From the NCBI RefSeq assembly GCF_001723175.1, contig NC_064655.1:2418001-2482000 (forward strand): a stretch of DNA of 64,000 nt. Reading direction: 5' to 3'. Below are positions 5,599 through 32,887 of this stretch, piece by piece (the stretch's first letter is position 1; each line of letters opens with the position of its first letter). The position numbers and the translations under genes are program-made. Under the pieces are notes generated by a model. The model did no database searches. It worked only from the letters and a program-made list of their open reading frames with translations, and was not told where the DNA came from. The DNA is from Penicillium oxalicum (taxonomy: Eukaryota > Ascomycota > Eurotiomycetes > Eurotiales > Aspergillaceae).

Positions 5599-6337
5599 TA
5601 TTATAGATCTTAAAGAAGCGCGAGGGCTATAGTTATTTAAGTAACGACCGAGAACTAATTATTCTACAGACACTAAGGATTAGCGTTATTATATACGTTT
5701 CGGTATACTTAGGTATACCCTAGGGACTTAAAGTAAGGGTAGTTAGGACGGGAGCTAGAAATAATCTACGGCTAACTAATACGAACGATACTTCCTTACT
5801 CTATAGGACGATTAGCGCGACGCAAGAAATAGCTACTATTTTACTAGCACCGGAATTATACCCTAAGTACGAGTAACTAGTAACTTATTATATAACTATA
5901 TCCTATCGGTAATAGGATAGACTTATCGGTAATAAGTCCTAGCGTATTAGTAATAAGTCTTAACTTATTAGTAATAGGAAGGACTAGATATATAAGGACA
6001 CTCTTTTTAGTATTATATATTTAGTTCTTCGCGATTAATTATATATTATTACTTAGTTACTACCTTAAAGCACTTTATACTCTACGGTTTAACTCTAAGA
6101 TAAACCTAACCTATAGGTAAGAGATTCACCTAGTAGTAATACTTAGTAATTAACCTACTTAGCGCGCACCTCTAGCACGTCTTATAAGACACTTAATAGG
6201 ATCTAACCCGTAGTAAGGCTTTACGAAGCAACGGTACGATTAAGAGACCTAGTTTTAGGATTAGAAGTTAGGATAGCAGGTAAGTATTAGCCCGGGACGT
6301 TCTAACTCATAGTAACTAGTCGGCACCGCGTAATATA
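5599..6337 (+). repeat. G1 3' LTR and possible flank
   Basis: A purine-rich tract ends in ggggataata, and the LTR begins at 5599 with TA (former TG). The stretch has no coding signal. It contains a cluster of short repeats (5903-5985) and a TATA-like stretch near 5986 (tatataagga), a plausible promoter. The right edge of the LTR is not certain. G2 sequence starts at about 6338, so the LTR either ends before it or is interrupted by it. The partner 5' LTR is outside the window, so the length cannot be confirmed. Confidence 0.6.
5903..5985. repeat. Four-unit short repeat in the G1 LTR
   Basis: Four diverged units of about 20-21 bp share the core tat(c/t)(g/a)gtaata, and each is itself nearly an inverted repeat (for example gacttat ... 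ataagtc). They lie just upstream of the TATA-like stretch, where transcription-factor sites of an LTR U3 region would be expected. The function is inferred from position only. Confidence 0.6.
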
Positions 6338-6655
6338 TAGGTCGAGTCATAGAGGAACTAAACTAAACCTATAAGTATATAAGTCCTAGAATCCTCTAAG
6401 GTAATCGTGAGATCCGATATTAGGTACTAAAGGTAGGAATTAAAAAGAGAGTGATATTATAAGTATAAGGAATCCGACTATAAAGACTGTCTAGAATCCT
6501 CTGTCTAAACTATTAATTAAGTATCTTAGTAATACCGGATCCTGTAAGCTAGGTCCTAGATAACCTTCCTCGACGGTAAGGCTCTTAGGTATCTCCTACT
6601 ACTAAATATCCGCCTTTAAGTATATATAACCGAATCCCCTACTATATAACCTTCC
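6338..6655 (-). repeat. G2 LTR-like terminal segment, copy 1
   Basis: This segment is shared almost base for base with 59255-59577, and both copies diverge from their surroundings at taggtcgag on the left. On its right side (upstream on the minus strand) is a polypurine tract (plus-strand pyrimidines at about 6656-6668), as expected just before a 3' LTR. No matching 5' copy is in the window, so calling it an LTR rests on the tract, the shared edge and its position after the last ORF. Confidence 0.6.
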
Positions 6656-6747
6656 CTCCTATAATTTACTATCCCTTAGTTAATTTCCTATATCCCTCGA
6701 TAGTAACGTTAGGTCTCCTAAAGACCCTTAGGCTAACTTATTAGGCT

Positions 6748-6925
6748 TGATAGACCTACAGGTCTACAAGGCAAGGAAGCAATCTGGAGGCGAGACAACT
6801 GGGATTGGGAAGTCTAAAGAGAAGGAAGAAGAGAGAGAGGGAAAACCCATGAGCGGGAGAAAAACCCTTAAGATACATGACCGCTGCTAGGCCTAGCAAA
6901 CATCTAGAGAGGGCAAACTCTCTCA
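6748..6925 (-). repeat. Copia A 3' LTR
   Basis: One of fifteen complete copies of the same LTR in the window. It starts TG and ends CA. It carries a 16-base palindrome (tagacctacaggtcta) at the primer-site side, a second short palindrome around gctaggcctagc, a polypyrimidine run (purine-rich on this strand), and a small inverted repeat at the other end (gagag ... ctctc). Confidence 0.95.
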
Positions 6926-6937
6926 CACCCTCCCTAG
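6926..6937 (-). promoter_or_regulatory. Copia A polypurine tract
   Basis: On the minus strand the bases immediately before the 3' LTR read cctagggagggtg. Other copies have a longer G run (gggggg). It is the expected primer site for plus-strand DNA synthesis. Confidence 0.8.
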
Positions 6938-7049
6938 GACTAGCAGCAATATGAAGAATAACATACATAATAGTGTAATATAATAAAATTTTGAAGGGGA
7001 GGGTTAGTTAGGATCTCTTATATACAATAATCTAGCACGATTATCTTGA

Positions 7050-8750
7050 AAAATCCTATTAGGCTTAGTTTTAGTAAGCATATTAGCGGTATTATCCTTG
7101 CTCGGGATACTAGTTAGTTAGATAAGGTTCTTTTTAATAAGGTCTCTGATTAAATAGTATCTCGTGCTAATCTAGGATAATTTTGGGCTAACTTTAGGGT
7201 TCATAACGGTCGTATATATTATCGGAATCACAAAATAGGGTAATTAGGATATTTTTATCGAATTCTTTATCTTGGTTTAATAGGGGTATAAGTAAAAGGT
7301 TAGTAGCAATTTTAGCAAGGTAAAGTCCCTCTTTCGCTACGGTCGCAAGGGCATAGTATTCGGCTATAGTCGATAAGGCTACTACGATATCTTGTCTTTT
7401 TGAGCTCTATAAGATTAGGGCACTAGCAAAGAACTAAATATATACTTCGGTAGATTTTCTATCCTCTGTATTAGCGTACGATAAGTCGATAAATCCTTCT
7501 AGACCCTTTGAGGGTTCTTTTCTAAATAGGATTCCTAAATTTGTAGTACCTATAAGGTATTGCAACAAAACTTTGTACGCTACTATATTATCTTTTCTCG
7601 GGTGTGCGTTGCGGCGCTATAGTTTAGATACGGTCGCTATAATATCCGGGCGTATTTTATTAAGAGCTAACCGATCTTTCCTATTATTTTAGTATAGGCA
7701 CCCTAATCGAATACGTTATCCTCTGTTAGATTATTTGATAGGGGATTTTCTAAGAGGGATTTATTAGAATTAGCGAAGGATTACAATTTTTATAGCCCTT
7801 ATTATAGATTAAATTTGTTAAATAAGCCTATTAGCTTATAAAGATATAGCCAGAGGGTTCTTTAATTATATTATATCCAAGGAATCTTTTGAATAGGAGG
7901 GTCTTTAGTTTTCTTTTATTTAAAAGGCCCTTTTTCATAGAGTTTAATTAATCCTTATATCTAGTCGCGAGGATATTATCTATATAGATTATAACAAATA
8001 TAGTATAGTCCTTATTAGTGAAGATATATAGTTCGGAGGGGATTAGAGAGAGGCCTAGGCTAGATAGGTTATCTTTGAAAAGTTTATACTAGAGATATCC
8101 TGCTTATCGCAATCTATAAAGCGCCTAGTTTAGTACGTATACTAGATCTTCTCCTTTTAGGCTAAATTATTTATATCTAGTTAGTTGCTTTATAAATATA
8201 ATACGGTTATTAATAGCGGTATTAAGGTAGGCTCTAATTACGTCCTACTGTTCCTTTTCTAATTGCGGATAGTAGCTATAGTAATAAATAACTTGGCCGA
8301 TATATCTAAGATAACTAGGGTATATCTTTCGTCAGGTTGGAAGTCTACGCCTAGACTTTAGCGGTTGCTATATACGACCTATCTAGCACAGAATTCTAGG
8401 ATATATCCTTCGGTATCCTATTTAATATTATAGACCTATTTACCTAGAAGGATTTTAGTACCTTTTAGGGGTTTAGTTACTAAAGTTATTATATTAGATA
8501 ATTCAAACTTCTTTAATTAGGTCTCTTCGGCTTTAAGCTATTAATTAGCGAATTAGGATTTTATAGCTTCCCTATAGGTTTAAGGGATTTTGACTATTAC
8601 CGACCGTATTATCTTAGTAGCTGCTTAATATACTAGGTCTAATTAAGTTGTCTTCGGTAGACGTAGCGAAGTATAAACTTCCTTTCGTTCTCTCTTTATG
8701 CTCTTCCTTAACTAGTCCTTTTATAGTATCTACTATTCCTTCTATAAGTT
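7050..8750 (-). pseudogene. Copia A reverse transcriptase and RNase H relic
   Basis: Minus-strand RT is marked by the catalytic box Y-I-D-N-I-L-A at 7975-7986 (normally Y-V-D-D), preceded by a frame reading A-L-Y-x-L-R, and followed by the copia RNase H: S-x-A-N-T-E-D-R-K-S-T (about 7490-7455), V-A-L-S-T-x-A-E-Y near 7370, and R-Y-x-L-I-R-D-L near 7150. The second catalytic Asp of RT reads Asn through a G-to-A change. The better-preserved sister copy at 42270-42675 confirms the assignment. Confidence 0.88.
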
Positions 8751-9299
8751 ATCTCGGAGTATATCTCCGTAGGCTTCTTCTTACTAGAGAGATAGAGCGT
8801 CTCTAGTCGCTCGTGAAATCTAGTTAATTTATCGTGATAGTATCGATAGGGTCCGCTAATAAAGCTTATAATATTAGGTAGCTACGGAACCTCTAAGGAA
8901 TTACTACTAGAGGGGGGAGTTATAGTTAAATTAATTAGGATAGTATCTTAGACTTTTTAATAGTAGGATTTAGGTTAGATTCTGGCGTAGGTAGGAATTA
9001 TCCTAGTATAGTCCTTCTCTTAATTAACGGGATTAGACTATCCGGGTTCTAGCGTAAAAAAATTCCTTCCTAGTTAGGAATTAGGTCTCTAGGGATTTAG
9101 ATTTTAGGATCCGGTCGAGTATTAGGGGCTCTTTTCCTTAGTTATATCGGTAAAATTTTGCGATATTAGGAAGGTTATAAAATTAGGATATTTTAGTCCT
9201 CTAGTATAGTTAGTAGTATACTTAGAGGGATTAGAGCGGGTTAGGGAAAAATTCGTCCCTCGCGTAATTCTAGGTCTTTTAGGAATTAGACTTAAGGAG

Positions 9300-11000
9300 G
9301 TAAAGATTATATCCCCTTCCTCTTTCCTGTTAGAGAGGTGAATTTTTAGAGTAGGAAGTTTGTGAAATTTAGATTTCTTCGTAGGTATCTAGGCTTATAT
9401 TAGAGTAGGTATTACGGTCGGGATCTTTATAGTGTTATCCGCGCGGGTAGTCTTTTAGGTAGGCCTATTTAATCGTTTCACGGTTATATCGGTTGTCTTT
9501 TTAATATTTTAGATCTTTATATTATAGAACCTTTCTTGTATAATCTGTTTAATTCGATTATCTAGGTCTAATAGCAGTATAGATAGTTCTTCCCAAAAGT
9601 CTATATCTCTTCTGATTATAACTTTTCTCTTATATAGGTCGTAAATCCTGTATTAGTAGCTATTCTTACTATTATATCTAACTAGGTATCTAATCTATGC
9701 CCTCGGGGCTATCTTTTGTCCTTAGGTTCGTTATTCTTTTAGAATATAGATATAGGCTTTAGAATACTAGATACGTAAAAACCCTAAATCGATTAGTTGC
9801 TTTACCCTAGAGCTATTAGTATTATGCTAGTACTTATTCTATCTTTCTAAAGGGGACAATTTTTTATTTAGTTTACGGATTCGGTTTATGATATAGGTAG
9901 TAGTAACTATAGCTTTAGGCCACAAAAATACGGGAGCTTAGGGCGTAGCTACTATAAGGGTTCGGGCCCCCTATATAATAAGATATCCAGAGCTTTTAGC
10001 AATACTATTTTGTTTATAGGTATAAGGGGCGCTTATTAAGAAAGTGCAACCCTTCTACTTAGCCTATTCTTTAAATTTAAAGAAACTTCTCTATCTGTGC
10101 GGATTTCGGAAGGCTAAGTGCTAGTAGAAGTAAAGATACGCTTTAGTATTTGATTAGGATATCCGAGGCTTAGCCTTTTATCTTTATTAGAATAGCCTAT
10201 CTAACCTAGTAGCATCGTTAACTACGATTAGGACGTATAATATATTCCCGATTCTAAGGGGGGTGCATAGCTAGATATTAATATAGATAAATTCCTATAG
10301 TATCTCAGAGCGTGTCTAGTTTATATAGGATACGATCCTCTTAGATTTTGCAATCTTGTAAGCTTTATAATTAAAATATTTGTTACTATAGACCTCCTTA
10401 CCGATTTTGTGATAGTTGATTTTTGCGGTAGGCTATCTAATATAACCTAGACGGTAATAGGCTACTTCTAGTGAAATTATGGTAAAGGAATATACGGTCG
10501 CTATAATTAGGGGGGCCTTCTTTTCGTACGCTATAGATAGTTTAATTAAAGTAGCCTTCAGAAATAGGATACCTCGTTTCCTATATACGTATACTATAAT
10601 CTTTTTTATTATCTAGGTTACAAAAATATTCTCTAGTCTTTCTAGCCTATTTTATAGTCCTTATATATTTAGGTCGTAGATAGGAGGTTAAAGTCACCTA
10701 TTAGTATATATTCGCATTATATATTAAGGGTTTTAGTGCCTTCTAGGAGGATTAATTTAATTCGAGCGATCACTTTTCTAAGAGATTTGACAGTTCTTCT
10801 ATCAGAGGTCTAGTATTAATAGCTATATAGGTTACTTTGAATTTTATAATTGCATTTCTATTAACACAAATCGAGCGTAATATACCTAAGTTAACGATCT
10901 ACTTAGTAGAGGGGTTTCTTTTGATTAAGGCTATAGCAAGCTAGGGATCTAGGCGGTCGGCGAAGTCGAATTCTACTACTATAAGGGCGTAGTAGTACTT
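9300..11000 (-). pseudogene. Copia A protease and integrase relic
   Basis: The minus strand at 10890-10910 reads stop-I-V-N-L-G-V-S-R-S-I, matching copia protease W-I-V-D-S-G-A-S-R-H-I with Trp lost to TAG and the catalytic Asp to Asn. D-F-N-L-L-S follows near 10710, a normal part of copia pol before integrase. The integrase zinc-binding region lies at about 10480-10370 (paired His then E-x-C-K-x-x-K-S in better copies). The core runs to about 9900, with the D-x-x-x-F-F-K-F-K-E region near 10080. The stretch to 9300 is the integrase C-terminal linker. Confidence 0.82.
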
Positions 11001-11249
11001 ATCTTCTTCTTTACTAGCCTATATTACTATATTTACGCTCGTATTATTATCCGTATTACCTCCCGTATTAGTATCTTCCTCTTTAAGATCCCTTCTATAT
11101 AGTTAGGATTAGGGTTAGGCCCCTTTAAGGTAATCGAATTCTTGTTCCTATTATTCTTTCTAATAGAAATTAGTATTATTAGATTTTGTTAGCTCTTCTA
11201 AGGATTTTGGAAGGTTTAGGTAGAATTCTGGGTATTACCCCGTTCTTCT

Positions 11250-12325
11250 TAATTCTATTATTATTATTATAGTCTACCCTTCTAGCGGTAGTCTATTTAG
11301 ATTATCTATATTCCTCTATAGGGTATTCACCTAGATACCTTTAACAGGCTTCTAATCTAGGGTTCGCGATATAATAACTAAATAGGCGCAGTCTTTAGTA
11401 GCATAGCCTTTTCTTCCGCAAAAGAAGTAGTTACCGTTCGGGGTAACCTAATTTAGGCCTTTAGTCTATTCTTTTACCTATTCCTATAGCGATTTACCTC
11501 TCGGAGGTATATACTTCAACGGGAGGTATTCATATTTATCTAACGAGGGTTTTGAAGATTTTCCGGTTATCGTAGTTATAACGCTCGAGAATTAGTAATT
11601 CACAATTTCTAGTTTATAGATTACCTTAGTGAAGGTTCGGAAAAGGTCTAGTACTATAATCTTTACAATATTTTCGTATCTGTTAGAATAATCTGCTAGT
11701 CTAGCAGTACAAAGGTTAGGATATTACTTTGTAATTTATCAAGAAGTAGGGAAACGATTATACCTAGGGCAAGTTAGACTTCTTCTGTTACTTTAGTATA
11801 GGCACTACGAAATTTATACACAAAATCGATTACCGATAGGTAGTTAGCTCGGTAGGTTCGCAGAACCCTAGTCACCTTCTTTTTGCTAGGAATAAAGCTA
11901 GTAGTATAGAGGGCCTTTTTCAAGCTAATAATATATTTATTAGCGAATTCGCATCAATCTCATAGCTTAACTATCGCATCGATATCCTTCGAGATAGATT
12001 GTTAGAGCTATATCTGTATAGTATAGGAGTATTCGACCCAAGTTTCTGCTTCGTCAGATATCACTTTAGGCCTATTACATTTTAGGTTAACGAGGCGATA
12101 GAGTCCTTTCTTTTTAAGGATTTAGTATATATCTCTAAACCAGTCCTCGAAGTCTTCTGTTCTTTCTAACAATTTAAGTAGGTTAAGGGTGAATTCTTTG
12201 GGGGCGCTAGTAAGTTAGTTTACTAGCTAGCCTCGGGATTTCAGGGTAAAGAATTTGCTATAGTCCTCACGAGATACAGGGAATTCTTCAACCCCGGCCG
12301 CTTAGCCGAGATCTTCTTTAGCTAT
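11250..12325 (-). pseudogene. Copia A gag relic
   Basis: The start is placed at 12325, where the conserved ATG of the family reads ATA followed by codons for A-K-E-(D/E) (a G-to-A RIP loss of the start). The frame reads an all-helical Gag with L-K-K-K-G-L-Y-R-L near 12110 and a terminal zinc knuckle at about 11432-11388 (C-G-R-K-G-Y-A-T-K-D-C in the best copy, His read as Tyr). TAG/TAA interruptions sit at Trp and Gln positions. Confidence 0.82.
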
Positions 12326-12539
12326 AGTTAGTATTTAGGAATATAATTAAGGTTTAGGTAAATTTGATGATTTAGGTGATTTAGGTAGGATTTAGGGATA
12401 GAATTTAGTAAGAAGGGAGGTTTGTAGGGGATATATGGTATTGTTGTGTTGTGGTGTGGTTTGAAGTGAGAGATATTAATATTATAGTAGTCCTAGCAAA
12501 CATTAATAGACGCGTCTTTTCTTTTAGTAATATTGAATT

Positions 12540-12700
12540 TGGCTTCCACAGCCTGGTTGAATTTGTTGTATTTGATAAGTTTCTGGCTTCTATAGCCTGG
12601 TTAGATTTGTTGATTTGTATTAGATTTGATGATTTGAATTTAAATTTGGTGATTTGGTGATTTTGGTGATTATGGCTTCTATAGCCGAATTTAATGAATT
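12540..12700 (-). repeat. Copia A leader repeats
   Basis: Three copies of a short motif (ggcttctatagcc or a close variant) lie at 12541, 12585 and 12671. The first two are part of a 44-base tandem unit. The motif is a near-palindrome and lies between the primer-binding site and gag. Other copia copies carry different numbers of the 44-base unit. Confidence 0.75.
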
Positions 12701-12755
12701 TGGTGATTGAAAATTTGAGAACTTGTGGTTTTCACAAATTTAGGCCTCACTATTA

Positions 12756-12772
12756 CGATCGGGCTCATAACC
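12756..12772 (-). promoter_or_regulatory. Copia A primer-binding site (initiator tRNA-Met anticodon-arm type)
   Basis: Directly after the 5' LTR the minus strand reads ggttatgagcccgatcg. Its complement, cgatcgggctcataacc, fits the region of initiator tRNA-Met from the end of the D arm through the anticodon CAT. This is the layout of elements primed by a half tRNA, as known for Drosophila copia, and not of a primer pairing with a tRNA 3' CCA end. The motif is repeated next to every 5' LTR of the family here. Confidence 0.75.
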
Positions 12773-12950
12773 TGATAGACCTACAGGTCTACAAGGCAAG
12801 GAAGCAATCTGGAGGCGAGATAACTGGGATTAGGAAGTCTAAAGAGAAGGAAGAAGAGAGAGAGGGAAAACCCATAAGCGGGAGAAAAACCCTCAAGACA
12901 CATGACCGCTGCTGGGCCTAGCAAACATCTGGAGAGGGCAAACTCTCTCA
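12773..12950 (-). repeat. Copia A 5' LTR
   Basis: Pairs with 6748-6925, which it matches closely; the differences are mostly C/T and G/A. TG...CA ends are intact and it is followed by the TSD aggct. It is one of the less mutated copies. Confidence 0.95.
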
Positions 12951-15650
12951 AGGCTATATAAAATTTAGTAAAACTAATAGACCCTTCTCCTTTCGCAGAA
13001 AATAAGAGTATACGCTAAATTACTACTATTCGGCCTTTATTATTATCTTAAAATATAGTAGGTAGGCCTATCTCGCCTAGTCGCGCTACTCCTAGATTAA
13101 TCTATACGCTTATTACTAATTCCGGCTAAAAAGAACGTCTAATTCTTCGATAACTATAGGAGAATCCTATCTTTCGCGACCGATTAGCGTATCTCTAATC
13201 GGACTTAATTCTAGTAACTAAATTAATATAGAAAAAGGATACGTAAGCCGACTACTATATTTCTAACTAGATTATCCGGAAGGAGTCTTTTTAGATAACG
13301 AAAAATCGCGATAATAAGCTAAAAGTTTAGACTAAGTACCTAATTCGGGACTATCTAAGGTCTTATAATCTTCTCTGATACTAATAAACTATAGTAAAAC
13401 CGTTCGCCGAAGATAGATCGCTAGTCCTATTAATCTATAAGAAAGGTATAGCTTCGAAATATATATATCTTCCTACCTATAGATAACCTTTTCCTAGAAG
13501 AGACTAAATTTCTCCTTATCTTCTACTATCTATATCGTAGCTAATATCTTATAGATTAAACTATCTTTCTAGTAACTACGATCGTATAGATCCTGCTACT
13601 ACTCGGCGAGATAGTTTTATATCCTAAGTAGTATTTTAGTATAATTTCGTAGGTTCTTATCTGTTAAAGAAACTATCCCTTAGATCGTATTCGCTATTTA
13701 TTAGGATATAAGGAGGTCCGTTATATTAATATTAAGATAGCGGAGAGTAGTCTATTTACTAGAGTATATACTCTTCGCGTAGTAAGGAAACGAAATTAGC
13801 CGATATTAATAATCCGGTCGTAGTAGAATATAGAGTAGGTAGTAGGTATAGTCGCGCTATACTAGTTACTAGATACTACTATATTATACGTTTTTAGCCT
13901 ATCTAACCCTTAGTATATACTTTCGCGATTAGTAATACTAGTTATATATATTAAATTCCTCCTCGATTATATCTATTAGACCGCGAGGATAATAGCCGTC
14001 CTAATCGTTACGTAGCTATATAAAAATTAGCACTACTACGCTTCTGTTAACGTTCTAATCCCTCTCTATTTTCTTCCTAAAACTTAGTAGAACCCTTCTA
14101 AAATAGCGAAAACTTATATCCTAAAAAGTTAGATACTATATCTTCTCGAAATTAGATACTAGAGATTTTCGTATCTTAGAAGGGAATCGAAAATAGCTCC
14201 TAAGTTCTTTTCCGGAGGATAGTTTAAACTAGACTTTAAATTCCTTCTTAGCCCTATCCTAGTTACTGAGCTAGGCGTAAAGGTATCGTAAGCGTTATAC
14301 TAGAGTCCTATAATCGATACTATTAGTATAAATATACAAAAGATATACTAGCTAAGTTATATACCCCTTTTAAATCGAATTAGGGCTAATTTCGGTTATA
14401 TTTTCGCGAATAGACCTACTAATAAGCCAAAAAATTACTAGCGCTTCGCGCTTACTTTTAGTATCTAATTTTGTCTTCGGAATCACTTTAGCTAGCCTAG
14501 AAGTATCTATTTTATATCTATAGGGTACTAACTTTAATAAATCTTACGATATCTTCGGTTTCTTAGTAGTGGGCTCTGTTAATAGTTCTAATTTCTGCGA
14601 TTATTTATTATTATATTATCGTTATCGTCGTTACTTAGTTCTAGGCTCTATTTACGCGATTAGATTTCTTCTATAGAAGAAATTCGGCTTCCTTCTAGAT
14701 CCTAGTTTCGCGATAAGATTTCTTCTATAGAAGAAATTTAGCTTTTATCCTTATCTAGAGCTACGCTTTAATCCTTATCTATCTTATCTAAAAGTCGCGG
14801 TATCTAATAGTATTCGTATATAAATCTATCTTTATTAATCGATAGATATTATCTTAATAGTCTTTCTAGCGTTAATTCTGTTAAATCCGGCGATTTATAG
14901 GCGTTATCGAGATTATCTTATATAACCTCTTTAGCTCTTCGGATCCCCCGCCTATATATTTCTTTCTTAAGTCGTTAGAGAATAGCGTTATTAACTCAGA
15001 GCTATATCTCTTCGAAACTAATCCTATACCTTACTAGTTTACTAACCTTTTTAGCGAAAGCTTTTGTTTAGACTCTGATTATAATCTTTTTAGCGTCCTA
15101 TTCTAAGCTTATAGCGCTATATATATTACTTACTAGATATAGTTCTTATTATATTCGTAACGATTAATTACTTCTCTTACTACTATCTAGCTATCCTTAA
15201 AACCTTCCTAAGTCTTATATCCCTTCCAAAATTCGCTATCTTTTACAAAGGTATAGAGTTCGATCGCGACTAAGTCTAAAAATACCTATCGTTTTTCGCA
15301 AATCTTATATAAATAGAACTTTACCGTCTTAGAGACCTAGTCTGTAGGTAGCGTTCGTAATTCTTCGATAATCTTAGCAGGGGAAGTAATTAGTATTAAA
15401 CGATTACTTAGTATCGAAGATATAATATTAAGGTACTAGCTTACGGCGGATATCACAGCCTAGTTTATTATATTAAATTCTTTTACAGAAGAAATTCGTA
15501 GTATTTAGCGAAAATCGTTATAATTTAAGCTCTTCCTAGAGACTTCCCTCCCCTCCTAAAAATCTTACCGTCCCTAGCAAGTTCCTTTTCTATTACCTTT
15601 TAAAATAGTCTTATAAATTACTAAATTTCTAAACAAAGATAAAATTTAGC
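12951..15650 (-). pseudogene. G2 third ORF (ORF3), long protein of unknown function, copy 1
   Basis: Downstream of integrase on the minus strand, a single frame runs for about 890 codons from near 15650 to a TAA-TAA pair at 6741-6743 and 6738-6740, the last codons being cut off by copia A (TSD aggct). I found only TAA and TAG interruptions in the part I translated, and no TGA. I do not recognise the family. Visible features: a mixed charged N-terminal half with no membrane segment; two copies of an F-L-L-x-K-K-S motif 54 bases apart (near 14670 and 14725), each encoded by a perfect palindrome; and a C-terminal third rich in Arg, Tyr and Ile. The same frame recurs at 59680-64000. An env-like role is possible from position, but no fusion or membrane feature is visible. 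It could also be a captured gene. Confidence 0.6.
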
Positions 15651-15789: not shown

Positions 15790-17530
15790 CGCGGTAGCCG
15801 TCCTCTTCTGCGCCTTTATATAGTAGGTAGCAATCCGTTCTTAGCCTTAATTCTTTTATCCTTATCTAAATTTCTTTTATCCTAGAGCGCCTAGTAATAA
15901 AATCTTTTTAGCCTACTACTATTAATACTAGCGCTCGCTTTATTTATCTATTAGTAAAGCGTGCTATCTAGTTCTTTAATTTTGTAAGCGCTATTTTTTA
16001 GATCCTTTCTAATTTAATATAGCCCTATCTATCGAAACCGGAGCTTATTTCTAGATATTATATCGTCTTCTAACCTAGTAATATAGAGAAGGACTAAGTC
16101 TTTTTCTTTTAGGAGCGTAATTCGTAGGTTTCTATAAGAGTCGTAATATTCTTTATTCTAAGCTCTCAGTCTTTCAAGCCGTATTATCGTAGCAGAGATA
16201 TCCTAGTCTCGTCTTTTAATTTATTTAGCTCGTAACGTAATTAGATCTGCGCGTATCTCTACCTTTTCCTAGGTAGTATCGACTAGGTAGATATATTTAA
16301 TTCTATTAGTAAGATAGTATCTTATCTATAAATAAATTAGAAGAGTAAGATACTAGTATATATATATAAAGTCGCTCTATTAGTAAGTATCACGGCTAGT
16401 AGCTTTTAGGACTATTTTAGTTTAATACCTTCTAATAGTTTACATCTATTCGTTATTTTAGATAAGGCGTCTTTTAGAGTTCGTATTACTCTCTTAATCG
16501 CCCTATTCGCCTATAGGTTATATACCGAAATTAAAATAGTATCGATATAGTACGATTTTAAAAAATTTTGTATTTCCGAATATATTTTAGGACTAAAATT
16601 TATAATAATCTCCTAAGATACCCTATACCTATAGATAATATCCTCCTAAACGAATCTAGTAGCGCTTTTACTATCTACTTTCTAGAGAATCCTTACTTCT
16701 AGCTATCTACTCGCTAAATCTCTTACTTAGATAACTCCTTTTTAACTATCCTTGTTAGATAGCGGGGTAGTATTAATATACTATTTCTCCTAGATTCGTA
16801 TTAGTCTTACGCTTCTAGCAGATTTATATAGTCTAATAGGATTACGCGCCTAGTATTCGAAGTATACTCGTATAAATTTCGTAGTCTTGTTATATATTCC
16901 TAGCTAATAGTACCGCGTAGCTAATAGGTTATAAGTAGCTTCGCGGCATTTATAGCCTAATTCTTTATATAAGCGCTATAGCGTCTCTTTTTATATCCTA
17001 GTATCGTCTAAAATCCTTCGTATAATTAGATCTCTGCTTTATCCTCTATAAAATATATATTAATCTTAGACTATAAATCTTAAAGCCTTTTTCTTAAACG
17101 TACTAAATTTACTACAAGATATCTTAGCGAGCCTATATAATATTATTAAGAACCTTGTAATTTTCTAAGATTCTTCTAAATATAATCCGTCTAGAATTTC
17201 TGTACTATTAGTCGTTTCTTCTATAGAAGAAATCTCTTAAGAAATAGGAATTTTAACAGAAACTATAGTTTCTACTAGGGAAATTATAACGCGAAGATAA
17301 GAGATTTTAGCTATAATAAATTTTTTAATATCTCTCTCCTTTTCTTGCTCTTCTAATTCTTCTAGCGTAGTAGGCTTCCTAGATAGGCTATTAGCGGTAC
17401 TATTTTTTATCCTAGGAATATACTTTATATTAAAATCGAAGAGCCGAATCTAAGTAAGCTATCGCGTTACTAAAGTACTAGGTAAGTCCGAAGCTAGTCG
17501 ATTTAATTATATTACTAACGTATTAGTATT
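15790..17530 (-). pseudogene. G2 integrase and end of RNase H, copy 1
   Basis: From 17530 leftwards the minus strand reads the end of RNase H (L-F-D-F-N-I-K-Y-I-P then S-L-S-R-K-P-T), a linker, and an integrase N-terminal region (about 17120-16880) with the L-x-K-E-L-G-Y-K-C-R-E-A-T-Y pattern of the zinc-binding domain (His now Tyr). The core continues to about 16430, with Y-N-L-stop-A-N-R ... D-A-L-S-K, typical of this fungal Ty3 lineage. After about 15790 the reading becomes AT-rich and weakly coding for roughly 150 bases before ORF3. Copia H separates this block from the upstream half of pol. Confidence 0.75.
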
Positions 17531-17709
17531 TGATAGACCTATAGGTCTACAAGGCAAGGAAGCAATCTGGAGGCGAGATAACTAGGATTAGGAAGTCTAG
17601 GGAGAAGGAAGAAGAGAGAGAGAGGGAAAACCCACGATAGGGGAAAAACCCTTAAGATATATAACCGCTACTAGGCCTAGCAAATATCTAGAGAGGGCAA
17701 ACTCTCTTA
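17531..17709 (-). repeat. Copia H 3' LTR
   Basis: Begins TG and ends TA (former CA). It is followed by a plus-strand C-run, which is the polypurine tract of the minus-strand element. Confidence 0.93.
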
Positions 17710-17819
17710 TACCCCCCCTAGGACTAGTCAATGTAAATAATAATATATAGTAGTATAATATAATAAAATTTAAGGGGAGGGTTAGTTAGGATCTCTTATA
17801 TAATAATCTAGTACGATTA

Positions 17820-20800
17820 TTTTAAAAATCCTATTAGGCTTAGTTTTGGTAAGTATATTAGCGGTATTATCCTTGCTCGGGATACTAGTTAGTTAGATAA
17901 GGTTCTTTTTAATAAGGTCTCTGATTAAATAGTATCTCGTGCTAATCTAGGATAATTTTGGCTAACTTTAGGGTTTATAACGGTCGTGATAGTATTATCG
18001 GAATCACAAAATAGGGTAATTAGGATATTTTTATCGAATTCTTTATCTTAGTTTAATAGGGGTATAAGTAAAAGGTTAGTAGTAATTTTAGTAAGGTAAA
18101 GTCCCTCTTTCGCTATAGTAAGGTATAGTATTCGGCTATAGTCGATAAGGCTACTACGATATCTTATCTTTTTGAGCTCTATAAGATTAGGGTACTAGCA
18201 AAGAACTAAATATATACTTCGGTAGATTTTCTATCCTCTATATTAGCGTACGATAAGTCGATAAATCCTTCTAGACCCTTTGAGGGTTCTTTTCTAAATA
18301 GGATTCCTAAATTTGTAGTACCTATAAGGTATTATAAAAAACTTTGTACGCTACTATATTATCTTTTCTCGGGTATATATTACGGCGCTATAGTTTAGAT
18401 ACGGTCGCTATAATATCCGGGCGTATTTTGATTAAGAGCTAACCGATCTTTCCTATTATTTTAGTATAGGTACCCTAATCGAATACGTTATCCTCTATTA
18501 GATTATTTAGATAGGGGATTTTCTAAGAGGGATTTATTAGAATTAGCGAAGGATTATAATTTTTATAGCCCTTATTATAGATTAAATTTATTAAATAAGC
18601 CTATTAGCTTATAAAGATATAGCTAGAGGGTTCTTTAATTATATTATATAAGGAATCTTTTAATAGAGGGTCTTTAGTTTTCTTTTATTTAAAAGGCCCT
18701 TTTTTATAGAGTTTAATTAATCCTTATATCTAGTCGCGAGGATATTATCTATATAGATTATAATAAATATAGTATAGTCCTTAGTGAAGATATATAGTTC
18801 GGAGGGGATTAGAGAGAGGCCTAGGCTAGATAGGTTATCTTTAAAAGTTTATACTAGAGGTATCCTGCTTATCGCAATCTATAAAGCGCCTAGTTTAGTA
18901 CGTATACTAGATCTTCTCCTTTTAGGCTAAATTATTTATATCTAGTTAGTTACTTTATAAATATAATACGGTTATTAATAGCGGTATTAAGGTAGGCTCT
19001 AATTATATCCTACTGTTCCTTTTTCTAATTACGGATAGTAGCTATAGTAATAAATAACTTAGCCGATATATCTAAGATAACTAGGGTATATCTTTCGTTA
19101 GGTTAGAAGTCTACGCCTAGACTTTAGCGGTTACTATATATACGACCTATCTAGTACGAATTCTAGGATATATCCTTCGGTATCCTTTTAATATTATAGA
19201 CCTATTTGCCTAGAAGGATTTTAGTACCTTTTAGGGGTTTAGTTACTAAAGTTATTATATTAGATAATTTAAACTTCTTTAATTAGGTCTCTTTAGCTTT
19301 AAGCTATTAATTAGCGAATTAGGATTTTATAGCTTCCCTATAGGTTTAAGGGATTTTAACTATTACCGACTATATTATCTTAGTAGCCGTGCTTAATATA
19401 CTAGGTCTAATTAAGTTATCTTCGGTAGATATAGCGAAGTATAAACTTCCTTTCGTTCTCTCTTTATACTCTTCCTTAACTAGTCCTTTTATAGTATATC
19501 TAACTATTCCTTCTATAAGTTATCTCGGAGTATATCTCTAGGCTTCTTCTTACTAGAGAGATAGAGCGTCTCTAGTCGCTCGTAAATCTAGTTAATATTA
19601 ATAGTATCGATAGGGTCCGCTAATAAAGCTTATAATATTAGGTAGCTATAGAACCTCTAAGGAATTACTACTAGAGGGAGTTATAGTTAAATTAATTAGG
19701 ATAGTATCTTAGACTTTTTAATAGTAGGATTTAGGTTAGATTCTAGTAGGTAGGAATTATCCTAGTATAGTCCTTCTCTTAATTAATAGGATTAGACTAT
19801 CTAGGTTCTAGCGTAAAAAAATTCCTTCCTAGTTAGGAATTAGGTCTCTAGGGATTTAGATTTTAGGATCCGGTAGTATTAGGGCTCTTTTCCTTAGTTA
19901 TATTAGTAAAATTTTGCGATATTAGGAAGGTTATAAAATTAGGATATTTTAGTCTCTAGTATAGTTAGTAGTATATTTAGAGGATTAGAGCGGGTTAGAG
20001 AAAAATTTTCCCTTACTAATTCTAGGTCTTTTAGGAATTAGACTTAAGGAGATAGAAGATTATATCCCCTTCCTCTTTCCTATTAGAGAGGTAGAATTTT
20101 TAGAGTATAGGAAGTTTATAAAATTTAGATTTCTTCGTAGGTATCTAGGCTTATATTAGAGTAGATATTATAGTCGGATCTTTATAGTAGTCGTTATCCG
20201 TGCGTAGTATTTTAGGTAGGCCTATTTAATCGTTTTACGGTTATATTAGTTATCTTTTTAATATTTTAGATCTTTATATTATAGAACCTTTCTTATATAA
20301 TCTTTTAATTCGATTATCTAGGTCTAATAGTAGTAGATAGTTCTTCCTAAAAGTCTATATCTCTTCTGATTATAACTTTTCTCTTACTTAGGTCGTAAAT
20401 CCTATTAGTAGCTATTCTTACTATTATATCTAACTAGGTATCTAATCTATACCCTTAGGGCTATCTTTTTCCTTAGGTTCGTTATTCTTTTAGAATATAG
20501 ATATAGGCTTTAGAATACTAGATACGTAAAAACCCTAAATCGATTAGTTACTTTACCCTAGAGCTATTAGTATTATACTAGTACTTATTCTATCTTTCTA
20601 AAGGGGATAATTTTTTATTTAGTTTAGATTTAGTTTATAATATAGGTAGTAGTAACTATAGCTTTAGGTACAAAAATACGGGAGCTTAGGGCGTAGCTAC
20701 TATAAGGGTTCGGGCCCCCTATATAATAAGATATCTAGAGCTTTTAGTAATACTATTTTATTTATAGGTATAAGGGCGCTTATTAAGAAAGTATAACCCT

Positions 20801-21750
20801 TCTACTTAGCCTATTCTTTAAATTTAAAGAAACTTCTGTCTCTATCTATACGGATTTCGGAAGGCTAAGTACTAGTAGAAGTAAAGATACGCTTTAGTAT
20901 TTAGATTAGGATATCCGAGGCTTAGCCTTTTATCTTTATTAGAATAGCCTATCTAAACCTAGTAGTATCGTTAACTACGATTAGGACGTATAATATATTC
21001 CCGATTCTAAGAGGGGTATATAGCTAGATATTAATATAGATAAATTCCTATAGTATCTTAGAGCGTTTAGTTTTATAGGATACGATCCTCTTAGATTTTA
21101 TAATCTTATAAGCTTTATAATTAAAATATTTATTACTATAGACCTCCTTACCGATTTTATAATAGTTAATTTTTATAATAGACTATCTAATATAATCTAG
21201 ACGGTAATAGGCTACTTCTAGTAAATTATAGTAAAGGAATATACGGTCGCTATAATTAGGAGGGCCTTCTTTTCGTACGCTATAGATAGTTTAATTAAAA
21301 TAGCCTTTAGAAATAGGACACCTCGTTTCCTATATACGTATACTATAATCTTATTTATTATCTAGATTAACAAAAATATTCTCCTAGTCTTTCTAGCCTA
21401 TTTTATAGTCCTTATATATTTAGGTTATAGATAGGAGATTAAAGTTACCTATTAGTATATATTCGTATTATATATTAAGGGTTTTAGTACCTTCTAGAGG
21501 ATTAATTTAATTCGAGTAATTACTTTTCTAAGAGATTAATAGTTCTTCTATTAGAGGTCTAGTATTAATAGCTATAAGGTTACTTTAGAATTTTATAATT
21601 ATATTTCTATTAATATAAATCGAGCGTAATATACCTAAGTTAACGATCTACTTAGTAGAGGGGTTTCTTTTAATTAAGGTATAGTAAGTAGGGATCTAGG
21701 CGGTTAGCGAAGTCGAATTCTACTACTATAAGAATATAGTAGTACTTATC
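17820..21750 (-). pseudogene. Copia H pol relic (protease, integrase, RT, RNase H)
   Basis: Colinear with A. The RT catalytic box Y-I-D-N-I-L-A is at 18744-18755, RNase H lies between about 17860 and 18260, integrase at about 20550-21250 and protease near 21640. Almost every Trp, Gln and many Arg codons are now stops or changed, and small deletions shift the frame several times. Confidence 0.82.
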
Positions 21751-22049
21751 CTCTTCTTTATTAATCTATATTACTATATTTACGCTCGTATTATTATTCG
21801 CGTTATCGCCTATATTACTATCTTCCTCTTTAAGATCCCTTCTATATAGTTAGGATTAGGATTAGGTTCCCTTTAAGGTAATCGAATTCTTGTTCCTATT
21901 ATTCTTTCTAATAGAAATTAGTATTATTAGATTTTAATAGCTCTTCTAAGGATTTTAGAATATTTAGGTAGAATTCTAGGTATTATCTCTGTTCTTCTTA
22001 ATTCTGTTATTATATATTATAGTCTACCCTTCTAGCGGTAGCCTATTTA

Positions 22050-23076
22050 GATTATCTATATTCCTCTATAGGGTATTTACCTAGATACCTTTAATAGGCT
22101 TCTAATCTAAGATTCACGATATAATAACTAAATAGGCGTAGTCCTTAGTAGTATAGCCTTTTCTTCCGTAAAAGAAGTAGTTACTATTCGGGTAACCTAA
22201 TTTAGGCCTTTAGTCTATTCTTTTACCTATTCCTATAGCGATTTACCTCTTAGAGATATATACTTTAATAGAAGGTATTTATATTTATCTAACGAGGATT
22301 TTAAAGATTTTCCGGTTATCGTGGTTATAACGCTCGAGAATTAGTAATTTATAATTTCTAGTTTATAGATTATCTTAGTAAAGATTCGGAAAAGGTCTAG
22401 TACTATAATCTTTATAATATTTTCGTATCTATTAGAATAATCTACTAGTCTAGTAGCTATAAAGGTAAGAATATTACTTTATAATTTATTAAGAAGTAGG
22501 AAAACGATTATACCTAGGGTAAGTTAGACTTCTTCTGTTACTTTAGTATAGGTACTACGAAATTTATATATAAAATCGATTACTAATAGGTAGTTAGCTC
22601 GGTAGGTTTATAGAACCCTAGTTACCTTCTTTTTACTAGGAATAAAGCTAGTAGTATAGAGGGCCTTTTTTAAGCTAATAATATATTTATTAGCGAATTC
22701 GTATCAGAATCTTATAGCTTTGACTATTATCGATATCCTTCGAAATAGATTATTAGAGCTATATCTATATAGTATAGGAGTATTCGACCTAAGTTTCTGC
22801 TTTATCAGATATTATTTTAGGTCTATTATATTTTAGGTTAACGAGACAATAGAGTCCTTTCTTTTTAAGGATTTAGTATATATCTCTAAACTAGTCCTCG
22901 AAGTCTTCTATTCTTTCTAATATTTTAAGTAGGTTAAGAGTAAATTCTTTAGGAGCGCTAGTAAGTTAGTTTACTAGTTAGCCTCGGGATTTCAGGGTAA
23001 AGAACTTACTATAGTCCTCGCGAGATATAGGGAATTCCTTAATACCGGCCGCTTAGCTAAGGTCTTCTTTAGCTAT
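22050..23076 (-). pseudogene. Copia H gag relic
   Basis: The start position (ATG now ATA) is at 23074-23076, by alignment with the other copies. The zinc knuckle lies at about 22185-22140. The family L-K-K-K-G-L-Y motif is near 22860. The frame is heavily interrupted. Confidence 0.78.
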
Positions 23077-23284
23077 AGTTAGTATTTAGGAATATAATAA
23101 TAGAGGTTTAGGTAAATTTGATAATTGAGGTAGGATTTAGAGATAGAATTTAGTAAGAAGGAAGGTTTGTAGGGGATATATAGTATTAGTATATTATAGT
23201 AGGGTTTAAAATAAGAGATATTAATATTATAGTAGTCCTAATAAATATCAACAGACGCGTCTTTCTTTTTGTTGATATTAGATT

Positions 23285-23398
23285 TAGCTTCTATAGCCTA
23301 GTTAATTATATTATATTTAGTGAATTTCTAGCTTCTATAGCCTAGTTAATTATATTATGTTTAGTGAATTTCTAGCTTCTATAGCCTAGTTAAATTTG
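23285..23398 (-). repeat. Copia H leader tandem repeat (44-base unit)
   Basis: The unit starting tagcttctatagcc is repeated at 23285, 23329 and 23373, with a 44-base period. A further isolated motif copy lies near 23466. Element A has one unit fewer and F fewer still, so the array varies in length within the family. Confidence 0.8.
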
Positions 23399-23563
23399 TT
23401 AAATTTATATTAGATTTAATAATTTGAATTTTCAATTTAGTAATTTAGTGATTTTCGTGATTATAGCTTCTATAGCCGAATTTGATAGATTTAGTGATTA
23501 AAAATTTAAGAACTTATAGTTTTCACAAATTTAGGCCTTACTATTACGATCGGGCTCATAACC

Positions 23564-23742
23564 TAATAGACCTATAGGTCTACAAGGCAAGGAAGCAATC
23601 TAGAGGCGAGACAACTAGGATTAGGAAGTCTAGGGAGAAGGAAGAAGAGAGAGAGAGGGAAAACCTACGATAGGGGAAAAACCCTTAAGATATATAACCG
23701 CTGCTAGGCCTAGAAAACATCTAGAGAGGGCAAACTCTCTTA
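23564..23742 (-). repeat. Copia H 5' LTR
   Basis: Both terminal dinucleotides are RIP-changed (TA...TA for TG...CA). The primer-binding site complement precedes it at 23547-23563 on the plus strand, and the TSD gtatt follows. Confidence 0.93.
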
Positions 23743-25115
23743 GTATTAGTTTCTAGTATAAACCTTACCTTATATAGCTAATACTATAGCTTTTTGAATA
23801 CCTTTATTACCCCGCGATATTCTAATTTTCTAGTATTATATATTTACTCTAATTTAGACTAAACCCCTAACTTATATCGTACTACTCGTTATACCCCTTC
23901 TCTTTTCTATATTAAAACGCTATCCCTATCCTATTTTTAACGCGTCTACTATAAGTATTAGGTCTAATAGATTCTAGCTATAATCGACTAGCATAACCGC
24001 TAGAAAACTATATAGTATCTCCTTAATCTTCTTAAAGGTATTCTGTTTATTATTACTCTAATCGAATATCGTATCCTTCTGTAATATCGTATATAATAGC
24101 GCTATAATATACTAAAAATCCTTTACTAGAATTCCAAAGTAGACTATAAGACTAATAAAAGAGCGTACCTTATCGCGATTAATAGGGACTAGCTAGTCGG
24201 CTAACTTAGAAATTTTTCGCTTATTAGATCTACGCTCGTTAGAATCATATACCTAGCCTATAATTTTAAGGCCGGATATTATAAGTTACGATTTTTCTGT
24301 AGAAACTCTCGCTCCTATAAGTTCTAAAATGTATAGGGTCTTATCTAGATTTTATATATATTCTAAGATAAACCTCCTAATCCCTAGTCTTATAAACTCG
24401 TTATTATACTAGGTCTTAGGTTCTTTAACCGGAATATTATCTATAAAAGGTTTAGTAATATATAGAATATTAGCTAGGATCTATATAACTACTCTTTAGA
24501 ATTACGGTACAGAACTCGAAGCCTCTTATAATAATATAGTCTACCTTAGTAAACCTATTAGGGTCTAAATCGCTATTATATTTCGATCGCGACTATCTAG
24601 AGTTATCTAGTTATACCCGGAAAATAGATTAATAGTAGATAATATTACTATACCTAAATATTCTTTCGTCTATATTAGGGAGTATATTCGTATCTTGTAC
24701 TATTACTTTATTAATATATATTATAGTGTTTACTATACGATATTTTCTATTCTTCCTACGTACTAAAAACTAAGGATTTCGGTAGGGACTATCGTAATAT
24801 TCTAGGACCCCTTTTTATAATCTTTCCTATAATATCTCTTTAACTATATCTTTTAGTACTAGCGGGATTCGAAATCTAAGATACTACTAGGCCTTATACC
24901 AAATCGTCTTAATATATTATAGCGGTATTACTTCTAGGAAAATTAAAGATATATAGGACTAATCCTACGCAAAATAACCTTCTCTTTTGAATAGTATCTC
25001 GCGTAATAATTCTCTTTCCTTTAGTAGAAGATCCTTTCTAATTAATATTTTCTGCTCCCTTTTAGGTATTAGACGCGTACCTCTTACGATTATAGAGATC
25101 CGTAATATTAGTAGA
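23743..25115 (-). pseudogene. G2 reverse transcriptase and start of RNase H, copy 1
   Basis: The minus strand from 25110 leftwards reads a pol N-terminal part, then RT. F-L-V-R-R-K-N-R-K-Y-R-I-V and I-N-K-V-I-V-Q-D-T-N-I-L-P-N-I-D-E (about 24790-24680) are hallmarks of a fungal Ty3 branch. The catalytic box is at about 24430-24447 as F-I-D-N-I (normally F-I/L-D-D). V-Y-F-G-I-L-V-K-D-F follows near 24150 and leads to the RNase H start, where copia H has inserted (TSD gtatt at 17526-17530 and 23743-23747). One frame change in the middle of RT is needed to follow the family pattern. Confidence 0.8.
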
Positions 25116-29857: not shown

Positions 29858-31400
29858 AGTTAGGACTATAACTAAGCTAGGGACCCCTAGTACGCTACGA
29901 TTCGAAGGCAGAAATATATTAGAATTCTTGGATAGCTTTAAATATATATATAAGCGCTATAATATAAGGAATAATACGCGAATTTTAGAGATCCTTCTAG
30001 ATTAGTATAGTTAGTTATAATAGGTATAGGTTAAGGCGAATTCTAACTAGTAAGCGAAGAATAAGGAAGAGTTTTTCTAGGACTTTAAAGATTAGTATCG
30101 CGATACTAATAGCCTATAGGCTATCTATACTCGTATCTAGTTACAGAGCTTCTATAGAAATTATATTAAATAGGATAACTTTTATATATATTTAACTATC
30201 TTTTTGTCTATTTCCTTATATCTGGTAAAGAGAGGATATTAGCGATTTAGAACGATATACTTAGTTTATTAAAGGACTACCCGAAAAGTTAAGATCGAAA
30301 TTAATTAAGAAGGAGAAAATCAATATTAACTACCCTTCTAGAAGTAAAAGACAGATCTCTTCCGATTAGATTAAAAAAGCTACTAGGGATCTAAATTAGG
30401 ACTAGAAGGATTATAATCTCGCGATAAGCTATATAGTACCTAAGAAAGAAATCTAGGTCTATGTAGATTCTAGAGAAAAATCGTATAAGGAACGGAAAAT
30501 AATAGATACCCCGAAAAATAGAGATTCTATAATTAAGAATACGAGCTCTCTAAGAGGATAGGATTTAGAAAGTTTAACAAAAGCTTTTAATAGTCTATTA
30601 GTAAATATACTAAAGGTTATTAAAGACTAGTAGAAGGCTACTCATAAATAGAGAGTCTTAGTTTAGTACCTAATCGCGAAAAATAATAACCGAAATAACC
30701 TTACTTATATACCTATAAGATAGATATCTAATAGTTACTACTAGTATAGGAATAAAGGATATTAAGTAACTAGTTATCCTATCTATATAAGTATATAAAA
30801 TAAAGGATTATACTACTAGAATAAACTAAATTAGGTAGTACTTAGAAGGATTAGTAAGAATAGACTAGAGGCGCGTAAGAGAGGTAACTTATTTTAGAAG
30901 GATATAGTTCCGGACTAGTACTAGTAGTAGAAGAATTAACGTATAAGCGTTAACGCTATCTCTACTATTACTACGCCTTAATTATATTTAGGGGTCTATT
31001 CTTACTATACTCTGTAAATTTATACTACTTAGGTAGATTAAGTAGGGATTTCTCTTAGAAAAGACGCTAATTTCGAAGGATTAGAAGGAAGCGAAGACGA
31101 AATATACAAGAGAGAAGTCTTCGCTGTTAATAGATAACTAGCTAGTCGTAAGCGCTCTAACTAGTCTAGAAATTATATAAAAGTATATAATATACGACCG
31201 AGCAGATACTATCTAGCGACTATTAATAAAGACGATATAATAGCGGATATAGTACTAGCCCCTTTATAAATTTCTTCTATAGAAGAAATTTATAGGCAGG
31301 AATAGGATCGCTAACTAAATAGTTAGCCGCGAGATTCTTCTATAGAAGAAATCTAAGACTAGGGTAGTCAGACCTAGAGAGCTAGTTAAGACGTAAGATT
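29858..31400 (+). pseudogene. G2 gag relic, copy 2
   Basis: The frame reads a fungal Ty3-type Gag: an early E-F-L-D-x-F motif near 29920, the L-V-K-R-G ... L-P-E-K-L-R-S-K region near 30220-30290 (typical of the capsid C-terminal half), and a zinc knuckle at 30736-30777 with exact C-x2-C-x4-H-x4-C spacing, all Cys and the His now reading Tyr. The basic and Ser/Arg-rich tail after it carries two palindromes (31265-31294 and 31335-31350). The N-terminal part continues left of the solo LTR to about 29300. Confidence 0.72.
31265..31294. repeat. 30-base perfect palindrome in G2 gag
   Basis: The segment is identical to its own reverse complement over all 30 bases, centred on the core ttcttctatagaagaa. 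The 16-base core recurs in G2 at 14666, 14720, 17216, 29150 and 31335. CTATAG at the centre is what RIP on both strands makes of CTGCAG. Confidence 0.85.
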
Positions 31401-32709: not shown

Positions 32710-32887
32710 TGATAGACCTATAGGTCTACAAGGCAAGGAAGCAATCTAGAGGCGAGAAAACTGGAATTAGGGAGTCTAGGGAGAAGGAAGAAGAGAGAGA
32801 GAGGGAAAACCCATGATAGGGGAAAAACCCTTAAGATATTAACCGCTACTAGGCCTAGCAAATATCTAGAGAGGGCAAACTCTCTTA
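32710..32887 (-). repeat. Copia D 3' LTR
   Basis: Complete LTR, TG start and TA end. The polypurine tract (plus-strand C run) follows at 32888-32900. Confidence 0.92.

What the first reader, a model, noticed from the sequence alone, without database searches (positions are those of the whole stretch)
12951..15650. A long third ORF of unknown function in a Ty3/gypsy element
Seen: one minus-strand frame of about 890 codons lies between the integrase and the LTR-like end of G2, interrupted only by TAA/TAG in what I translated. The same frame recurs in an independent copy (59680-64000), with substitutions of the RIP type. Known: Ty3/gypsy elements normally end after integrase; those with an extra downstream ORF usually carry an env-like gene. 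Here I see no signal peptide, fusion or membrane segment. Inference: this is either a new accessory gene of a fungal retroelement or a captured gene. This is my best candidate for something undescribed.
Basis: partly seen in the sequence, partly recalled or inferred. Interest (0 to 1): 0.75.

Follow-up and report, generated by a model that had tools for sequence, protein, structure and literature searches.

The report
Retrotransposon carrying a dioxygenase-like gene
A fungal jumping gene of the Ty3/gypsy type carries, behind its usual genes, a third gene whose product looks like an iron-dependent oxygenase, an enzyme class that other mobile elements have taken up and that may help this one escape silencing by its host.

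Summary
The third ORF is real, but the evidence first given for it was not. In the window copy the claimed frame has as many stops as the others, and two length changes make it the coding frame only from about 14604 down. Homology settles the case: ORF3 is collinear, in both halves, with undamaged uncharacterised fungal proteins (20 of 29 are 845-984 aa; Penicillium, Coccidioides, another Onygenales species, a partial one from Phaeosphaeriaceae). Their C-terminal domain of about 350 residues carries the HxD...H...R signature, matches Pfam PhyH in 4 of 29, and is modelled like Fe(II)/2-oxoglutarate oxygenases, closest to DUF1479 (YbiU, Gig2). ORF3 belongs to the element: all 27 long integrase matches in the genome have it downstream, 25 at the same spacing, and nine LTR pairs are 10.66-10.82 kb long. 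Stops and shared transversions show the coding pattern that the integrase shows. The copies read are RIP-damaged. Ten paper searches listed no fungal LTR retrotransposon with such a gene; [quoted passage not shown] Substrate is unknown; counter-silencing is my best guess. Whether pol lies beside the homologs in other fungi could not be tested.

The parts
12951..15496 (-). ORF3 of G2 copy A: accessory gene, RIP-damaged, frame changes at about 15096 and 14634-14605; start codon not determined; its last codons lie beyond the nested element, from 6747 down
   Evidence: blastn to copy L015; tblastn of homologs
12951..14604 (-). By position: CxC about 14522-14514, CxxH about 14372-14361, then the double-stranded beta-helix oxygenase domain with HxD about 13739-13731, distal His about 13439-13437, Arg about 13409-13407
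   Evidence: P0014 residues 404-856 match 14312-12957, E 4e-52; site positions derived
14819..15261 (-). N-terminal helical part of ORF3, in two other frames in this copy (15261-15154, 15103-14819)
   Evidence: P0018 84-120 and P0011 115-207; N-terminal homology of copy L015
15789..17533 (-). end of RNase H, and integrase to the end of pol homology
   Evidence: P0038 523-1100
23700..25111 (-). reverse transcriptase and start of RNase H, separated from the integrase by a nested element
   Evidence: P0038 66-465 and P0039 537-607; L035 1974-3341
29880..32714 (+). gag-like, protease-like (by eye) and RT-start part of a G2 copy, in inverted orientation
   Evidence: P0043 (E 9.5e-6), P0044, P0039; L035 1-1984
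17524..23740 (-). nested LTR-type element (copia-like by eye; Pfam only sub-threshold) splitting G2; not part of G2
   Evidence: self-alignment to 6733-12948, 91.5%
6748..12950 (-). nested element of the same family splitting the end of ORF3 from the 3' LTR; not part of G2
   Evidence: self-alignment
6331..6747 (-). end of ORF3, G-rich tract and 3' LTR (about 6645-6331, truncated) of G2 copy A
   Evidence: L035 7891-8305; LTR limits
59225..64000 (-). G2 copy B: ORF3 pieces 64000-62817 and 59965-59680, then 3' LTR to about 59225; insertion at 59966-62816

Best explanation
G2 is a 10.7-10.8 kb Ty3/gypsy retrotransposon of a fungus with the order LTR, gag and pol (RT, RNase H, integrase), ORF3, LTR. 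ORF3 (about 850 codons by homology; start codon not fixed) encodes a protein with an N-terminal helical region, a conserved Cys/His cluster (CxC...CxxH) and a C-terminal Fe(II)/2-oxoglutarate oxygenase domain of the PhyH/DUF1479 type. Shown: its presence behind every long integrase match, its homology, the conservation of the metal- and 2OG-binding residues in relatives, and a coding pattern like that of the integrase. Inferred: it was an active enzyme made from the element, and it oxidised a group on nucleic acid or chromatin so that the element's RNA or DNA escaped host silencing, as proposed for AlkB in orchid Ty3 elements and TET/JBP in fungal DNA transposons. The copies read in this genome are now mutated by RIP, so it did not protect them in the end. 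My confidence: oxygenase-fold protein 0.93; integral part of the element 0.95; catalytically active when the element was active 0.75; counter-silencing as its role 0.35.
Against: No activity was or could be tested. No copy without stops was seen, so activity in this species is inferred from relatives. The fold does not tell the substrate: the PhyH-type enzyme PHYHD1 acts on free nucleosides and not on RNA (PMC12709175, abstract). No Pfam Tet_JBP or AlkB match in any of 29 relatives. The copies carry RIP. Transversions seen in single copies show no clear codon-position bias (40/34/51, p 0.17), and one reverse-strand frame has slightly fewer columns with any stop (107 against 111). Adjacency of pol and ORF3 in other fungi was not shown: none of the 12 pol relatives shares a listed longest-contig length with an ORF3 relative.
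Confidence: 0.6

Rival explanations
1. ORF3 is a captured metabolic oxygenase carried as a passenger, with no role in the element's life.
For: The closest folds (DUF1479 group, then EctD, GriE, fungal PrhA and others) are not known to me as nucleic-acid enzymes.
Against: It follows 27 of 27 long integrase matches, its shared transversions favour third codon positions as in integrase, and the family keeps an N-terminal region of up to 500 residues that lies outside the matched structures. The P. majusculum cluster P0014 shows two locus tags with one prefix, which fits mobile copies.
Confidence: 0.2
2. ORF3 hydroxylates a protein, for instance the element's own Gag or a host chromatin or translation factor, and so acts in particle assembly or expression and not on nucleic acid.
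For: 2OG oxygenases of the same superfold hydroxylate proteins (general knowledge); ORF3 sits behind pol.
Against: No direct evidence either way; no protein-hydroxylase family among the Pfam matches of 29 members.
Confidence: 0.2
3. ORF3 is an env-like gene.
For: Position downstream of integrase.
Against: No membrane segment by hydropathy in 12 relatives (highest 19-residue Kyte-Doolittle mean 1.51); homology and fold are of an oxygenase.
Confidence: 0.01
4. ORF3 is a chance stretch between RIP stops or a host gene next to one insertion, not part of the element.
For: In the window alone the frame is no more open than the others.
Against: 24 matches of 2.3 kb or more, fixed position between integrase and LTR, homology to undamaged proteins.
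Confidence: 0.01

Closest known systems
Phalaenopsis orchid Ty3/gypsy elements with an AlkB-type 2-ODD gene (PMC9289625; abstract and Results section 'Screen for Non-canonical Domains' read)
   Same: A Ty3/gypsy LTR element carrying an additional ORF for a 2OG-Fe(II) dioxygenase
   Different: Plant; about 25 kb element; AlkB domain with m6A demethylase activity shown in vitro. Here a fungus, 10.7-10.8 kb, PhyH/DUF1479-type domain, no AlkB match in 29 relatives, activity unknown
TET/JBP-carrying fungal DNA transposons (PMC12730594; passages read)
   Same: Fungal mobile elements that carry a 2OG-Fe(II) dioxygenase; proposed escape from methylation-based silencing and RIP-like mutation
   Different: DNA transposons and Helitrons; [quoted passage not shown] Here an LTR retrotransposon; no Tet_JBP match in 29 relatives
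DUF1479 proteins: YbiU, Gig2 of Candida albicans (PDB 7twe and 6akz bear the name DUF1479, 4rgk the name YbiU; that 2dbi, 2dbn and 2csg belong with them is recalled)
   Different: 12-15% identity, no DUF1479 Pfam match in 29 ORF3 relatives; not carried by retroelements so far as I know
PHYHD1 and related PhyH dioxygenases (PMC12709175; abstract read)
   Same: PhyH-type enzymes that act on modified (2'-O-methylated) nucleosides
   Different: Free nucleosides, not RNA; the abstract names no retroelement link
Bdelloid rotifer LTR elements with enzymatic ORF3 (PMC5408684; abstract read)
   Same: ORF3 in LTR elements encodes an enzyme and not an envelope
   Different: GDSL esterase or DEDDy exonuclease, not an oxygenase
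Uncharacterised fungal proteins P0006-P0034 (for instance Penicillium longicatenatum N7484_000242, Coccidioides posadasii P0020)
   Same: Same family as ORF3; P0014 and P0015 compared over both halves
   Different: Without internal stops; about 30-36% identical to the damaged copies over long matches; their genomic setting could not be seen

Membership tests
Ty3/gypsy LTR retrotransposon | pol order RT, RNase H, integrase | tested here: met
   tblastn of P0038 along window and L035; in one damaged copy RVT_1 at 20.1 bits, below the curated cut-off; relatives carry RVT_1, RNase H and H2C2 domains, two of 12 also PF00665
Ty3/gypsy LTR retrotransposon | paired LTRs | tested here: met
   9 pairs 10.66-10.82 kb apart; LTRs of about 344-346 bp with T(G/A)...(C/T)A ends, preceded at the 3' LTR by a G-rich tract
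Ty3/gypsy LTR retrotransposon | target-site duplication and tRNA primer site | tested here: inconclusive
   No clear duplication in the one copy (L039/L035) whose two ends I compared; no primer tRNA assigned
Fe(II)/2OG oxygenase superfamily (PhyH-like) | HxD...H metal triad and 2OG-binding Arg | tested here: met
   At least 90% conserved in 29 relatives; in the genome's own copies the expected residue survives in at least one copy at each site
Fe(II)/2OG oxygenase superfamily (PhyH-like) | double-stranded beta-helix fold | tested here: met
Fe(II)/2OG oxygenase superfamily (PhyH-like) | family profile match | tested here: met
   PhyH in 4 of 29 relatives at E<=10, 2 of 10 scanned seen above the cut-off; 25 of 29 and the damaged copy itself gave none
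Fe(II)/2OG oxygenase superfamily (PhyH-like) | 2OG-dependent oxidation | not testable with these tools
   Needs an enzyme assay
TET/JBP dioxygenase | Tet_JBP profile match | tested here: not met
   0 of 29 relatives at E<=10; HMMER's filters drop most matches above about 0.1
TET/JBP dioxygenase | closest fold | tested here: inconclusive
   Not among the 50 rows listed; such a list does not exclude
AlkB | AlkB-type 2OG-FeII profile match | tested here: not met
   0 of 29 at E<=10
DUF1479 | family profile match | tested here: not met
   0 of 29 at E<=10, although it is the closest fold
Retroelement envelope | membrane segment | tested here: not met
   12 relatives, highest 19-residue hydropathy mean 1.51; no signal-peptide predictor was run

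The most novel reading that the evidence does not exclude
A lineage of Ty3/gypsy retrotransposons in Ascomycota encodes its own nucleic-acid- or chromatin-directed 2OG oxygenase, of PhyH/DUF1479 type with a zinc-site-like module and so distinct from TET/JBP and AlkB, as a counter-measure against RIP or methylation-based silencing; the uncharacterised ~870-aa proteins in Penicillium and Onygenales are ORF3s of living members of this lineage.
Probability: 0.3. Interest if true: 0.85.

Novelty: new variant of a known kind. Interest (0 to 1): 0.62.

Why it matters
Capture of 2OG oxygenases has been described for fungal DNA transposons and for one plant LTR lineage; a fungal LTR retrotransposon with a different oxygenase type would be an independent case. 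Undamaged relatives exist, so the substrate can be tested directly, and with it whether retroelements in RIP-proficient fungi fight back against DNA or RNA modification. It also offers a likely identity for a family of 'hypothetical proteins' annotated as genes in several Penicillium genomes and in Coccidioides.

Tried and rejected
Rejected: env-like gene (no membrane segment); chance frame; host gene in this genome (51 of the 53 matches overlap the ORF3 matches, and the other two are decayed divergent fragments). TET/JBP was my first guess by eye; no profile match supports it.

Led nowhere: Pfam on a damaged copy gave only RT, RNase H and zinc-binding hits, all below their curated cut-offs; PDB by sequence gave no match and one chance match; NCBIfam gave what look like chance hits. 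Searches for related loci in viral contigs and genome contigs found no relative, so the setting of the homologs stays unseen. Most other Pfam rows (CDC45, Nop14 and the like) I take for low-complexity chance matches. The divergent ORF3-like fragment at C8:742989-743963 was read in L040; pol of G2 read as P0001-P0003 matched nothing beside it but LTR. The nested elements are copia-like by my reading only; Pfam gave sub-threshold rve and retroviral SH3 matches.

Papers: ten searches; among the titles and abstract starts listed, none describes an oxygenase gene in a fungal LTR retrotransposon. Three of them listed only a part of what they found: 15 of 115, 12 of 47, 10 of 194. PMC3248453, PMC5872316, PMC4112212 and PMC4595289 were read only as passages for chosen words; those passages describe no such gene. 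The library lacks most subscription papers, and Repbase was not searched.

Rows dropped before counts: in the coding-frame count 'windowB' was removed because it is the same genomic copy as L023 (29 rows kept of 30; still held it). In the integrase control L002, L006 and L013 were left out as doubles of L032, L034 and L038; L010, L012, L016, L020, L030, L031, L033, L035 and L037 were not in the list either; of 26 sources given, 25 gave a row. Structure models are of relatives P0020 and P0033, not of G2.

Full report
What the window shows. The window (G000:C6:2418001-2482000) belongs to a 30.8-Mb genome in 17 contigs. It is AT-rich (32.6% GC) and CpA/TpG-poor, as expected under RIP, and is a nest of repeats. 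The finding's region, 15650-12951 minus, lies in a Ty3/gypsy element (G2) cut by two nested elements of 6.2 kb at 17524-23740 and 6748-12950; I read these as copia-like, but Pfam gave only sub-threshold integrase matches. RT lies at 25111-23700, RNase H and integrase at 17533-15789, ORF3 at 15496-12951 and on from 6747, and the 3' LTR at about 6645-6331. The second copy runs from 64000 to 59225 with an insertion at 59966-62816.

Frame.

Copies. A DNA search of the genome gave 50 matches to the ORF3 region, 24 of them 2.3 kb or longer (recounted). Integrase gave 35 matches. Of the 27 of at least 1.4 kb, all have an ORF3 match next downstream on the same strand: 25 with 240-251 bp between the two matched segments (the queries themselves lie about 250 bp apart in the window, so this is the same spacing), one at 411 bp and one at 1557 bp. 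Of the 8 shorter pieces, 4 have it at 243-251 bp and 4 do not. Among the 27, an LTR match was found downstream within 15 kb for 16: 14 at 2986-3050 bp, the others at 3371 and 5862 bp, none nearer; 11 had none, but only 40 of 83 LTR candidates were scored. Nine of 15 same-strand LTR pairs closer than 15 kb span 10,658-10,824 bp, and each of the nine holds one of the 27 integrase matches. So ORF3 is part of the element; no copy with a long integrase match but without ORF3 was seen. Three LTR pairs only 1.8-2.2 kb apart were not examined. A search with an undamaged relative found 53 matches; 51 overlap ORF3 matches, and two are divergent fragments (C8:742992-743972 and C1:2675010-2675975). No undamaged host gene was found, with the limit that only the best candidates are scored. 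A search with a related pol gave 61 matches; 58 lie within 4 kb of an integrase match on the same strand, one is the window's own split RT, and two (C5:1559241-1560464, C8:731499-732038) were not examined.

Coding signal. For 29 copies aligned to L015, codon columns with a stop in any copy number 111 of 884 in the coding frame against 131 and 153 of 883 in the other forward frames; stops present in all copies 25 against 38 and 44; TGA in any copy 6 against 26 and 28. In each of the 29 copies the coding frame has the fewest stops of the three forward frames. On the reverse strand one frame has slightly fewer columns with any stop (107) but more with stops in all copies (42) and more TGA (18). 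Transversions, which RIP does not make, when shared by at least two copies fall 21/11/35 on codon positions 1/2/3 (chi-square p 0.0015; relatedness of copies is not modelled); those in single copies fall 40/34/51 (p 0.17). The integrase of the same element behaves alike: 45 of 438 columns with a stop, 17 in all copies, shared transversions 3/1/12 (25 rows). This fits purifying selection on ORF3 while the element spread. Of 357 gaps against L015, 324 are not multiples of three, as expected after loss of function.

The genome's own copies at these sites. At the first His, the Asp, the distal His and the Arg, at least one of 27-28 readable rows (of 30, one copy held twice) keeps the expected residue; at the two His and the Asp the others carry what C-to-T change on either strand gives, and at the Arg the rows split evenly between Arg and a stop. 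This fits an enzyme with its active site in place before RIP. I did not reconstruct it.

Mechanism. Shown: position, copy number, homology, fold of relatives, conserved active site, coding pattern. Inferred: expression after pol across a spacer of roughly 300-400 bp by a means not known; enzyme activity; and a role in evading silencing. The last rests on two precedents. Orchid Ty3/gypsy elements carry an AlkB-type gene with m6A demethylase activity shown in vitro (PMC9289625). Fungal DNA transposons carry TET/JBP genes thought to counter methylation-based silencing or RIP-like mutation, and the paper notes that no retrotransposon was found with one (PMC12730594, passages). Against it: the domain is of PhyH/DUF1479 type, and the PhyH enzyme PHYHD1 acts on free nucleosides but not on RNA (PMC12709175, abstract).

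Novelty. In ten paper searches no listed paper describes a fungal LTR retrotransposon with an oxygenase gene; I judged most by title and abstract start only. The kind (mobile element with a captured 2OG oxygenase) is known; the host group, element class and domain type together are new to me. Hence: new variant of a known kind. Open: whether the relatives in other fungi are also retroelement genes. The cluster P0014 shows two locus tags with one genome prefix and P0016 has 30 member sequences, which fits mobile copies but does not prove them.

Noticed in passing
window 29880-32714 (+) and 25111-23700 (-): The gag-like to RT-start part of a G2 copy is on the plus strand while the rest lies on the minus strand, with the break at nested elements: looks like an inversion between inverted copies of these.
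   Followed up: partly
G000 3' flanks of G2 LTRs (loci): Bases just after many G2 LTRs resemble CTAGNTA or ATATATA, which suggests a target-site preference.
   Followed up: no
window 14660-14740, about 17230, 31267-31356: A short palindrome (ATTTCTTCTATAGAAGAAAT and variants) recurs within the element; in the window the larger ORF3 length change lies some 30 bases from it.
   Followed up: no
L040 487-1434 (C8:742989-743963, minus) and C1:2674989-2675981, minus: Decayed fragments of a second, divergent ORF3-like family (31-32% identity), without recognised pol beside the one read (L040).
   Followed up: partly
C7:2087060-2088903, C4:3347841-3350014, C4:3414497-3416439: LTR pairs of G2 only 1.8-2.2 kb apart, perhaps internally deleted forms or neighbouring solo LTRs.
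   Followed up: no
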